Origin: a virus
Virus record (IMG/VR): IMGVR_UViG_3300042914_003763
Location: 1-64,000 of that record
Direction: 5' to 3' (one strand)
Length of the DNA: 64,000 nt
Positions 5,849 through 45,676 of the stretch are shown piece by piece (positions within the stretch are counted from its first letter, which is position 1; every line of letters begins with the position of its first letter). The notes under the pieces are model-generated. The model had not been told where the DNA came from. It did not search any database and was given only the letters and a program-made list of their open reading frames with translations. A program made the position numbers and the translations under genes.

Positions 5849-6184
5849 TTATGCTGCTACTTCATTTTCAACTTGATTGCTATAACGCAATTTAGATTGA
5901 TAAGCTTTAGCTGCACGGAACTTAGGTGATCTATGTGCAGGTACAGTTACACTACCTTCAGGACGTAGCTTGGTTAGTTCATTAACAATTACACGTTCCT
6001 TAGCATCAATAGCTAAGAACTTACCAAAGTCTTTAATAGTAACAGATTCACCTGCTGCTACAGTTTCAGCAATAATGTTGAAAACTGATGCAATAGCATA
6101 TTCCAACTTGTAAACTGGTAAAACCTTACCGTACTTAACCTCAAGATTCTTGTTAACTAAGGTAGCTAGTTGTTTAACGTTCAT
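5849..6184 (-). CDS. HU/IHF-family DNA-binding protein
   Basis: 111 aa. The sequence matches the HU fold: N-terminal helices ('LATLVNKNLE' and following), then 'GESVTIKDFGKF' (the beta-strand/FG turn of HU) and, after a variable arm, 'VPAHRSPKFRAAKAYQSKL', which corresponds to the HU C-terminal signature ending in the final helix. HU proteins bend and compact DNA and support integration and replication; here it may assist the nearby integrase or condense phage DNA. It is monocistronic, with its own terminator. Confidence 0.85.
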   Translation of the reverse strand: MNVKQLATLVNKNLEVKYGKVLPVYKLEYAIASVFNIIAETVAAGESVTIKDFGKFLAIDAKERVIVNELTKLRPEGSVTVPAHRSPKFRAAKAYQSKLRYSNQVENEVAA

Positions 6185-6421: not shown

Positions 6422-7366
6422 ATGGGTCACATTAAACTGTTTGAATACAACGCTAATCACATTGAATATGTACCAGGTCATGAGTTCTTTAATGGTACTC
6501 AGATGGCTAAATCTTGTGGGAAGGAAATTAAACATTGGTTAGAAAACTTACAAGCTGCCGAACTATCTTACGTATTAGCTAGAAAAAATGGAGAGGTCGT
6601 GATTCCGACTTCGCTTGAATGGCAAGGGTTTTCGACCACTCAGAAAATACGAGTAGCTAAACAAAATAAATACTGGAAGTATATTCGGATACATAAAGGG
6701 GGTGACACTCCATATCAAGGTACGTACCTTCATAAGCACATTGCAATTGCTTTTGCTCAATGGTGTAGTGCCGAATTTGCACTTCAAGTATCAGAATGGG
6801 TAGAACAATTAGCTACTCACGGTAAAGTAATTCTCAACCCAACCGAAGCTGCTGACTTTGAGAAGTTCAAACAACAACAACGTAGTAAACTTCAACTACC
6901 ATGTGAACCAGTAGATGAAATTGACTTACAGTTTCGTATATTAGATTGGGTTAACTTATGTGTCAATAACGCACGTTTCAATATCGAAGTTCCTATGTTG
7001 AATAGCAAAAACAAAGTGCGCCGTATTGACTTCATTAAGAACAACGGACGTAATGTAATAGCTTACGAACTGAAACTCAATAAGATAACACTTAATGATG
7101 TAACTGAAGCAATAGCTAATCGTGAATACTTTGAGTTGTTAAGCAATTACTTTAATCGTCCCATTACTTTTATTTTTCTATCTCCATTAGGTATCGCTGA
7201 TAATGCAACTACATTGTTACGAACTATGCCTAATATCAAGTTCCAAACTGTACATGAGTTATGTTATCAGTATTATCTTAAAGGTATTAACAACAAGTGG
7301 AAGAATAATGTTGTTAACTTAACTAACAATATGAACACTAATAGGTTTAGTTGCTTATTCAATTAG
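6422..7366 (+). CDS. KilA-N domain protein with nuclease-like C-terminus
   Basis: 314 aa. Residues about 1-145 are a KilA-N domain, with the diagnostic 'GTYLHKHIAIAFAQWCSAEF' and QVSEWVEQL. KilA-N domains bind nucleic acid and are common in phage antirepressors and regulators. Residues about 168-265 have the order D...(E/Q)xK seen in PD-(D/E)XK endonucleases ('RRIDFIKNNGRNVIAYELKL'), so the C-terminus may cleave DNA or be a degenerate nuclease fold. It sits between the HU and integrase genes, fitting a lysogeny or host-takeover role. It is convergent with the integrase gene. Confidence 0.75.
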   Translation: MGHIKLFEYNANHIEYVPGHEFFNGTQMAKSCGKEIKHWLENLQAAELSYVLARKNGEVVIPTSLEWQGFSTTQKIRVAKQNKYWKYIRIHKGGDTPYQGTYLHKHIAIAFAQWCSAEFALQVSEWVEQLATHGKVILNPTEAADFEKFKQQQRSKLQLPCEPVDEIDLQFRILDWVNLCVNNARFNIEVPMLNSKNKVRRIDFIKNNGRNVIAYELKLNKITLNDVTEAIANREYFELLSNYFNRPITFIFLSPLGIADNATTLLRTMPNIKFQTVHELCYQYYLKGINNKWKNNVVNLTNNMNTNRFSCLFN

Positions 7367-7405: not shown

Positions 7406-8656
7406 TTAAGTTATTAACTTCTTCAATCTTTGTACTTCATTACGAAGATATTGATTCTCTATTCTTAACCTATCTAACTCACTTATTTCATTCTTAACAT
7501 CTAACATCTTATCGAATGCTTTGTTATGTGTTGTATGATCCATCCACTTCTGATAAGTCTTAGTATGTTCTTCAACACTATGTCCCATCCACTTAGCTGC
7601 TATATCAACAGCTATTCCTAATTCACTAGCTCTAATAGCATAACGATGTCGTAAGTTATAAGCAGGTTGATTGAAACCATATCTTTGAAATGCTTGATTA
7701 AGTATGCTAATAATGTTTTCAAGTTTAGTTGATGCAGTAACAAATTGCATTACATCTAACAACTCAAACTTATCTACCCATTCTGGATGAATAGGATAAA
7801 CAATACGTTCACCTGTTTTAGTATCATCAGAAATATGTAATACATTACGGTGATTACTTTCAGAAGTAAACTTACTGTAACAATCTTCTGTTAGTAAGAA
7901 TAACTCACTAGGACGTAAACCATAAGTAGCTATCATTCCGAATGTCCATGCTACTTGTCTAGGCATACCATTGAAAGTAGCTTCAATATAACCATCAGTA
8001 GGTAATGTGCGTTTCTTAGGTTGATATTTACATCTGAATTGTTTCCAATCAATATCATCTTTGATTCCAACATGATCAGCTAAACATTTAATAACACGAA
8101 TTAGATCAGCACGTGGTTTGCTGTTAGGTTGTGTTGAATCAATCCAGTTACTAATATTTGATTCAGTTAACAGTTGATCATCAGGTATCTTTAAGAATAT
8201 ATCGGTGTAACTTTTTTCCCAAGTTGATAATGTTTTACGAGACTTCTCTCTTGTTTTCCAATATGATTCGGTAAATGCCTCCTTCACTTCAAACATAGTT
8301 TGGGGTTTAAGTTGTTCAACTTTTTTCTTCTGATAATCAGGTAGTAATAACCACCATTCTTTACCACCATATTTCAAATAGGAATCTACTTCGCGGCATT
8401 TGTTTTCAGCATCAATTACCCCTTGAATAGTGGTTTCATTGAATGGTATCCAATATCTTTTTGTAGTGTTTGGGTCTTCAATTACAGGTAATGTGCCACG
8501 TAAGTACAGACGTTTATTTTTTCTATCTATCAATAACTTTGCTTTACCACTACTGTTGAGACGATTGTTGGCATCAGTAATAGCTGTATCAATTTGTACA
8601 AGAAAATTATCTTGCTTACTACGTGACTCTTCACCAACATACTTCCTGTTAACCAT
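7406..8656 (-). CDS. int: Tyrosine recombinase / phage integrase
   Basis: 416 aa, the usual size. The catalytic domain shows the first Arg in 'TYGLRPSEL', 'HISDDTKTGERIVYPIHPEW' (beta-hairpin region that contributes Lys), 'NLRHRYAIRASELGI' (His-x-x-Arg type box) and 'WMGHSVEEHTKTYQKW' (second His and the nucleophile Tyr). The style is typical of integrases I recall from cyanobacteria and their phages. The N-terminal part includes an arm-binding/core-binding region, and a C-terminal coiled coil (ELDRLRIENQYLRNEVQRL) may mediate contacts. The start at 8656 faces attP, so Int binding upstream would also control its own expression. Confidence 0.93.
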   Translation of the reverse strand: MVNRKYVGEESRSKQDNFLVQIDTAITDANNRLNSSGKAKLLIDRKNKRLYLRGTLPVIEDPNTTKRYWIPFNETTIQGVIDAENKCREVDSYLKYGGKEWWLLLPDYQKKKVEQLKPQTMFEVKEAFTESYWKTREKSRKTLSTWEKSYTDIFLKIPDDQLLTESNISNWIDSTQPNSKPRADLIRVIKCLADHVGIKDDIDWKQFRCKYQPKKRTLPTDGYIEATFNGMPRQVAWTFGMIATYGLRPSELFLLTEDCYSKFTSESNHRNVLHISDDTKTGERIVYPIHPEWVDKFELLDVMQFVTASTKLENIISILNQAFQRYGFNQPAYNLRHRYAIRASELGIAVDIAAKWMGHSVEEHTKTYQKWMDHTTHNKAFDKMLDVKNEISELDRLRIENQYLRNEVQRLKKLIT

Positions 8657-8803
8657 AAGTTTTCTACAATTTCTTCTACACAGTTGTCAAATGTTTACTT
8701 ATCAATCAAGTTATCTGCTAAATATCAAGTGATAAGTTGAAAATGTTTTCCGAGATAGAAAAACACTATTGCAACGATTGTAGAAGAAATGTTTATTTTA
8801 GTC

Positions 8804-8864
8804 AACAGATTGCTAATCTGTTAGAGGCGCAAGCTTCTCATGGGTTCAAATCCCATCCTCTCCG
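8804..8864 (+). other. attP: attP core: 3' part of a tRNA-Ser(GCU) gene
   Basis: From the anticodon arm on, this folds as a class II tRNA: stem ACAGA/TCTGT with loop TTGCTAA (anticodon GCT, serine AGC/AGT), variable arm AGAGGC-GCAA-GCTTCT, T arm ATGGG-TTCAAAT-CCCAT, then acceptor strand CCTCTCC and discriminator G. The matching 5' acceptor GGAGAGG and the D arm are absent upstream, so it is not a functional tRNA gene. A 3' tRNA piece beside an integrase is the standard phage attachment core, restoring the host tRNA on integration. Confidence 0.8.
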
Positions 8865-8870
8865 TTGTTT

Positions 8871-8889
8871 GAGGTATTTAAAATACCTC
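8871..8889. terminator. Palindrome GAGGTATTT-A-AAATACCTC
   Basis: A perfect 9-bp palindrome 7 nt after the tRNA fragment, followed by TTCTTT. It may be the terminator captured with the tRNA 3' end, or a recombination-accessory site. Confidence 0.5.
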
Positions 8890-9028
8890 TTCTTTGGATT
8901 GCTTCTACATAACTTTCTACAACCAAAGGTATATGTTCCTATTCTGCAACAATTGGGACGTATACCTTTCTACATATTTTTCTACAGTGGTTACAATTAT
9001 AAGTATTAAGCCACCACGAAGTTCTTTC

Positions 9029-45499: not shown

Positions 45500-45579
45500 G
45501 ATGATTAAAACAGTGATGGTAAAAAAATCAGTAGAGTTATCGTTAATGTGCTTTATGCTCCGTGTAACCCTACTATTAT

Positions 45580-45650
45580 GGGACTATAGTGTAATGGTAA
45601 CACAAGGTTCTGTCTAAACCTTATTGCAAGTTCAATCCTTGCTAATCTCA
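45580..45650 (+). tRNA. tRNA-Asp (anticodon GUC)
   Basis: Cloverleaf: acceptor GGGACTA/TAATCTC with one mismatch and one wobble, D stem GTGT/ACAC, anticodon stem AGGTT/AACCT with loop CTGTCTA (anticodon GTC at 45612-45614), T stem GCAAG/CTTGC with loop TTCAATC, discriminator A. U at position 37 is unusual, since a purine is normal there. Lies between a consensus promoter and a terminator, so it is probably expressed. Confidence 0.8.
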
Positions 45651-45676
45651 TTAAACATCAAGCTAAAACAACAATT

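What the first reader, a model, noticed from the sequence alone, without database searches (positions are those of the whole stretch)
8804..8864. attP core from tRNA-Ser(GCU): the phage is likely temperate
A partial tRNA (anticodon arm to discriminator) next to an integrase is the usual sign of a tRNA-targeted attachment site. The host gene should end with the same roughly 60 bp.
Basis: partly seen in the sequence, partly recalled or inferred. Interest (0 to 1): 0.72.

Follow-up and report, generated by a model that had tools for sequence, protein, structure and literature searches.

The report
tRNA-serine attachment site of a cyanophage
This large phage, probably of cyanobacteria, carries the back half of a serine tRNA gene beside its integrase, flanked by paired repeats where the enzyme probably binds: the usual kit for inserting into a host tRNA gene, here well preserved but ordinary in kind.

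Summary
Window 8804-8864(+) is tRNA-Ser(GCU) from position 26 to the discriminator, without its 5' half or CCA, 148 bp upstream of a divergent tyrosine integrase (7406-8656, minus). It occurs once in a 117,113-bp contig with a 127-bp terminal repeat, so it is attP of a free phage, not a prophage end. New here: seven TTCTACA sites, six in three pairs spaced exactly 12 bp, flank the core like lambda arm sites; a hairpin terminator follows the core; an HU-like gene lies 1.2 kb beyond the integrase; the integrase model matches lambda Int best. Of 51 distant relatives, 31 carry a tRNA T-arm within 400 bp of the integrase, against one in 376 kb elsewhere. The host is probably a cyanobacterium, judged by gene kinship. 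The host tRNA was not found: the exact 26-nt 3' end occurs in 27 contigs of the bacterial collection, none labelled cyanobacterial. No duplicated prophage ends were found in relatives. 'Temperate' is likely but inferred: an anti-repressor is present, no repressor was recognised, and T7-like cyanophages with integrase and attP integrate without stable lysogeny. New member of a known kind.

The parts
8804..8864 (+). attP core: 3' part of tRNA-Ser(GCU), position 26 to discriminator 73, no CCA; anticodon 8812-8814; variable arm 8823-8838; T arm 8840-8856; acceptor 3' strand 8857-8863
   Evidence: single copy in the record
7406..8656 (-). tyrosine recombinase (integrase), 416 aa; R248, K280, R336, H359, Y368 invariant; beta-beta-beta-alpha N-terminal unit as in arm-binding domains
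   Evidence: phrog_1 integrase 4.4e-14; invariant columns; model pLDDT 89.1, first PDB match lambda integrase tetramer 1z1g_A, E 6.4e-7
8662..8680 (+). putative arm-type pair (TTCTACA at 8662 and 8674, 12-bp spacing), integrase side of the core
8779..8785 (-). single inverted putative arm-type site
8903..8921 (+). putative arm-type pair (8903 and 8915, 12-bp spacing), far side of the core
8968..8986 (+). putative arm-type pair (8968 and 8980, 12-bp spacing), far side of the core
8871..8896 (+). hairpin (stem-loop 8871-8889) plus T-rich tail: likely terminator for the tRNA rebuilt on integration
   Evidence: (z -3.92)
5849..6184 (-). HU/IHF-like DNA-binding protein; its part as DNA-bending accessory factor is inferred
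   Evidence: PF00216 3.9e-11, 43.5 bits against cut-off 22.4; phrog_379

Best explanation
This is the attP site of a lambda-type tyrosine integrase that targets a host tRNA-Ser(GCU) gene, in a circular-mapping phage of about 117 kb that probably infects cyanobacteria. Integrase probably binds the paired TTCTACA arm sites on both sides, with DNA bending (perhaps by the phage's HU-like protein), brings attP to the host tRNA gene and exchanges strands at the 5' end of the shared sequence, in or near the anticodon arm. One junction joins the host's 5' tRNA half to the phage's 3' half followed by the phage hairpin terminator, giving a working tRNA; the other joins the integrase side to the displaced host 3' half. 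Shown: tRNA fragment, integrase, repeats, hairpin, single copy, recurrence in relatives. Inferred: binding, crossover place, host gene, lysogeny.
For: Core anatomy. TTCTACA occurs 32 times in the whole record, 7 of them within 325 bp round the core and the only pairs at 10-13-bp spacing; random placement of the window's 22 sites gave no such cluster in 20,000 trials; no random stretch of the window (up to 400 drawn) scored as high. Integrase relatives lie in cyanobacterial plasmids (3 of 3 plasmid records) and cyanophage PSS2 (3 of 3 phage records, all PSS2). 31 of 51 relatives in viral contigs have a strict tRNA T-arm within 400 bp of the integrase ORF (31 in 38.0 kb) against 1 in 375.8 kb elsewhere in the same loci. 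Of 26 of those 31 examined (5 near-copies left out), 10 have a repeat with 10-13-bp-spaced pairs round the core at 0.3% or less of random stretches. L047/L072 has the same fragment type upstream of its integrase, with repeats. A hairpin terminator follows the tRNA end in 11 of 27 sites, window included, against 2-14% of random stretches.
Against: No host gene with this core is in hand (scan limited to the exact 26-nt 3' end). 20 of 51 relatives show no strict T-arm; 8 of these have one flank cut by the contig end to under 400 bp. PSS2's published site shows no such repeats in my test. No record searched held a second tRNA copy marking prophage ends. The integrase misses Pfam's cut-off (PF00589 15.6 against 27.1 bits).
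Confidence: 0.93

Rival explanations
1. The site is a working attP, but the phage is essentially lytic: it integrates rarely and transiently, as T7-like cyanophages do.
For: S-TIP37 and P-SSP7 integrate at tRNA-Leu through int and attP without stable lysogens (PMC8776855, passages). No CI-like repressor appears in the families printed for the ORFs scanned against PHROGs (of the 48 families only 25 were printed).
Against: An anti-repressor gene (record 64893-65633, phrog_130 2.9e-36) is more usual in phages with a repressor circuit. Repressors are often unrecognisable. This is a different phage and integrase lineage.
Confidence: 0.25
2. The fragment is a decayed phage-encoded tRNA gene, not an attachment site.
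For: The phage carries another tRNA gene (Asp), and phages do lose tRNA genes.
Against: Cut exactly at the anticodon arm, all three remaining helices intact, beside the integrase and inside an array of paired repeats; the same arrangement recurs in distant relatives with other tRNAs.
Confidence: 0.03
3. The contig is an integrated prophage and this is its attR (displaced 3' fragment).
For: A displaced fragment would look the same as an attP core (established knowledge; no call).
Against: 127-bp direct terminal repeat, one core copy, phage genes on both sides.
Confidence: 0.02

Closest known systems
Cyanophage P-SS2 (PMC2784084, passages read)
   Same: Large siphophage with an integrase and, beside it, a putative attP of 53 bp of which 36 bp match a host tRNA; integrases are distant kin (27% over 45% of the query).
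   Different: tRNA-Met there, tRNA-Ser(GCU) here; integrases fall in different parts of the tree; no paired repeats found round the P-SS2 site.
Mycobacteriophages Pixie and CrimD attP (PMC3203893, passages read)
   Same: Core flanked by paired arm-type sites; Pixie has a pair, a triple and one inverted site round a tRNA-Lys core; CrimD has a stem-loop terminator between core and P3.
   Different: Other hosts, integrase lineage, arm sequence and tRNA.
T7-like cyanophages P-SSP7 and S-TIP37 (PMC8776855, passages read)
   Same: Integrase plus attP equal to part of a cyanobacterial tRNA gene; integration shown.
   Different: tRNA-Leu, attP downstream of int, T7-like phages; no stable lysogeny.
Metagenomic phages linked to hosts by integrase plus partial tRNA (PMC3861242, passages read)
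   Same: The same reasoning, with 39-46-bp tRNA matches.
   Different: Exact host matches were found there; not here.

Membership tests
Lambda-type tyrosine integrase with tRNA attP | Tyrosine recombinase catalytic residues and fold | tested here: met
   R248, K280, R336, H359, Y368 invariant in 23 sequences, Y333 nearly so in place of the usual box-II His (roles recalled); lambda Int first in PDB by fold
Lambda-type tyrosine integrase with tRNA attP | N-terminal arm-binding domain and arm-type sites on both sides of the core | tested here: met
   beta-beta-beta-alpha unit at residues 41-95 of the model; three 12-bp-spaced pairs. Binding not tested
Lambda-type tyrosine integrase with tRNA attP | Core identical to the 3' end of a host tRNA gene | tested here: inconclusive
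   Fragment is a regular tRNA-Ser(GCU) 3' part; host gene not found
Lambda-type tyrosine integrase with tRNA attP | Prophage with duplicated ends | not tested
   Not for this phage; tRNA regions of five relatives used as probes showed no second tRNA copy
Temperate phage | Repressor or immunity circuit | tested here: inconclusive
   Anti-repressor found, weak BstA-like hit, no repressor among printed families
Temperate phage | Stable, inducible lysogen | not testable with these tools
   Needs a host
tRNA-dependent lysogeny (PMC10865867, passages) | Short core (about 10 bp) that does not rebuild the tRNA, plus a phage tRNA gene of the same isotype | tested here: not met
   61-base tRNA 3' part; only tRNA gene called in the record is Asp
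P-SS2-type integrase and tRNA-Met site | tRNA-Met core and grouping with the P-SS2 integrase | tested here: not met
   tRNA-Ser(GCU); window integrase on a long lone branch outside the 18-row group with P-SS2

The most novel reading that the evidence does not exclude
The integrase belongs to a broad cyanobacterial lineage that has repeatedly switched tRNA targets (Ser, His, Gly, Leu, Arg, Met, Ala, Phe, Lys by my reading) while keeping one layout: tRNA 3' part, 10-13-bp-spaced arm pairs with fast-changing sequence and, in many, a terminator that replaces the host tRNA's own. The window integrase, apart from the other two Ser(GCU) integrases in the tree, would have reached the same gene independently.
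Probability: 0.45. Interest if true: 0.45.

Novelty: new member of a known kind. Interest (0 to 1): 0.3.

Why it matters
It gives an uncultured 117-kb phage a precise, testable integration site and an integrase with candidate arm sites, which could become an integration tool for cyanobacteria. Lysogeny in unicellular cyanobacteria is described as apparently rare (PMC6157547, passages), so a defined site helps to look for it. The mechanism itself is textbook.

Tried and rejected
Blastn of the core region in plasmids and phages gave only short partial matches. Exact or lightly relaxed core in viral contigs: 0; a looser tRNA-Ser(GCU) pattern gave 17, of which L047 proved informative and L034 and L037 hold 3' fragments near contig ends without a related integrase.

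Near kin of the phage: integrase, terminase and DNA polymerase as single queries gave 0, 0 and 2 distant loci. Shared structural proteins among 35 of the 51 integrase records: 3 of 35 for the 939-aa protein, 3 of 35 for the terminase.

Prophage ends: probes L075 (8 records), L080 (10), L096 (3), L084 (3), L093 (7): no second tRNA copy, only one 14-base match in L096's record.

Rejected: tRNA-dependent lysogeny (core too long, no phage tRNA-Ser); decayed tRNA gene; prophage end. tRNA identities of relatives were read by eye; L063 and L066 stayed unassigned, L060 was left out of the count. The tree dropped 3 of 51 relatives with short or broken ORFs (L061, L077, L089). The arm test used 26 of 31 loci; L082, L085, L093, L095, L103 were left out as near-copies. 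In the terminator test L075 has an obvious palindrome that my rule missed.

Full report
OBSERVATION. Bases 8804-8864 are the 3' part of a tRNA-Ser(GCU), from position 26 to the discriminator base, with anticodon arm, variable arm, T arm and acceptor 3' strand and no CCA. The 5' part is missing, so ARAGORN ignores it and no Rfam family reaches its cut-off there. The structure is real: z -4.08, 0 of 200 shuffles as good; complement matching RF04351, E 1.6e-7, below that family's gathering score; and 8 of 9 in-silico joins to foreign tRNA-Ser 5' parts are called tRNA-Ser(gct), the ninth being a join cut too short. The core occurs once in the record.

GENOME. The window is part of a virus record of 117,113 bases whose first and last 127 bases are identical, as expected of a circular or circularly permuted genome assembled once round. 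GC is about 32%. Terminase, head protease, DNA polymerase, primase/helicase, exonuclease, ribonucleotide reductase, thymidylate synthase and dihydrofolate reductase are recognisable. Two large proteins match phages of Nodularia, Planktothrix and Aphanizomenon (11 records, all of the first two; 12 of 19 records). The integrase matches three cyanobacterial plasmids (3 of 3 records) and cyanophage PSS2 (3 of 3). A cyanobacterial host is therefore likely, though all these matches are remote (about 25-32% identity).

ATTACHMENT SITE. The motif TTCTACA occurs 32 times in the record and 7 times within 325 bp round the core: three direct pairs at exactly 12-bp spacing (8662/8674, 8903/8915, 8968/8980) and one inverted single (8779). 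No other pair at 10-13 bp was found in the record (the 10-13 test covered the plus strand, the minus strand was tested at 12 bp). No random stretch of the window scored as high, and random placement of the window's 22 sites gave no such cluster in 20,000 trials. This is the layout of arm-type integrase sites as described for mycobacteriophage Pixie (PMC3203893, passages). Directly after the core lies a hairpin with a T-rich tail (8871-8896), as in CrimD's attP. An HU-like protein is encoded at 5849-6184.

INTEGRASE. Pfam's integrase model stays below cut-off, but PHROGs names it, the catalytic residues are invariant in the 23 aligned sequences, and the AlphaFold model (pLDDT 89.1) has lambda integrase as its first PDB match, aligned over 371 columns (TM 0.43-0.49 with rmsd 13.2, so the domain arrangement differs). 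Residues 41-95 form three strands and a helix, the plan of arm-binding domains (recalled).

RELATIVES. A profile scan of viral contigs found 51 relatives. Strict tRNA T-arms occur 31 times in the 38.0 kb within 400 bp of the integrase ORFs, one in each of 31 loci, and once in 375.8 kb elsewhere. By eye the targets include Ser(GCU), Ser(CGA), His, Gly, Leu, Arg, Met, Ala, Phe and Lys. In several the tRNA likeness begins at or near the anticodon loop, which suggests the exchange point. 10 of 26 examined show paired repeats at 10-13-bp spacing round the core, with a different sequence in most loci. 11 of 27 sites including the window have a terminator behind the tRNA end. The tree leaves the window integrase on a long branch, apart from the other two Ser(GCU) integrases, so the shared target may be convergent. 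L047/L072 shares with the window an integrase of this family, a Ser(GCU) core and a remote relative of the 939-aa protein.

WHAT COULD NOT BE SHOWN. The host tRNA. No cyanobacterial chromosome could be reached. Prophages with duplicated ends: none found with the tRNA regions of five relatives as probes; records may be fragments.

TEMPERATE OR NOT. For: integrase, complete attP, an anti-repressor (record 64893-65633), a weak BstA-like hit. Against: no recognised repressor; and in T7-like cyanophages integrase and attP mediate integration without stable lysogeny, whose authors warn against equating the two (PMC8776855, passages). I put integration ability at about 0.9 and classical lysogeny at about 0.7.

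NOVELTY. Integrase plus partial tRNA is a known sign, used before to assign hosts to metagenomic phages (PMC3861242, passages) and described for P-SS2 (PMC2784084, passages). My searches for print on cyanophage attachment sites returned P-SS2 and S-LBS1 among few cyanophage papers; in what I saw of them (listings; passages of the papers cited here) no tRNA-Ser(GCU) attP of a cyanophage was described. This is a new, well-preserved member of a known kind.

Noticed in passing
L030:893-1633 (record 64893-65633, minus), just beyond the window: Anti-repressor (Ant family) gene, phrog_130 2.9e-36; hints at a repressor circuit not yet recognised.
   Followed up: partly
L030:3382-4239 (record 67382-68239, plus): Plus-strand gene among minus-strand genes with a weak match to BstA abortive-infection proteins (phrog_6287, 1.5e-4); BstA as a prophage defence is recalled.
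   Followed up: no
window 6422-7366: KilA-N domain protein (PF04383 8.8e-18) next to the integrase, possible regulator.
   Followed up: no
window 45579-45651: Intact tRNA-Asp(GTC) gene, the only complete tRNA gene called in the record.
   Followed up: no
window 8777-8805 (minus): Promoter-like site (10 of 12 consensus matches) between core and integrase, reading towards the integrase and overlapping an arm site; could allow integrase to repress itself.
   Followed up: no
L069 and L050: In the tree the integrase of viral contig IMGVR_UViG_3300034280_001497 lies very close to that of a 17-kb Microcystis plasmid, suggesting that the same mobile element or phage-plasmid is in both collections.
   Followed up: no
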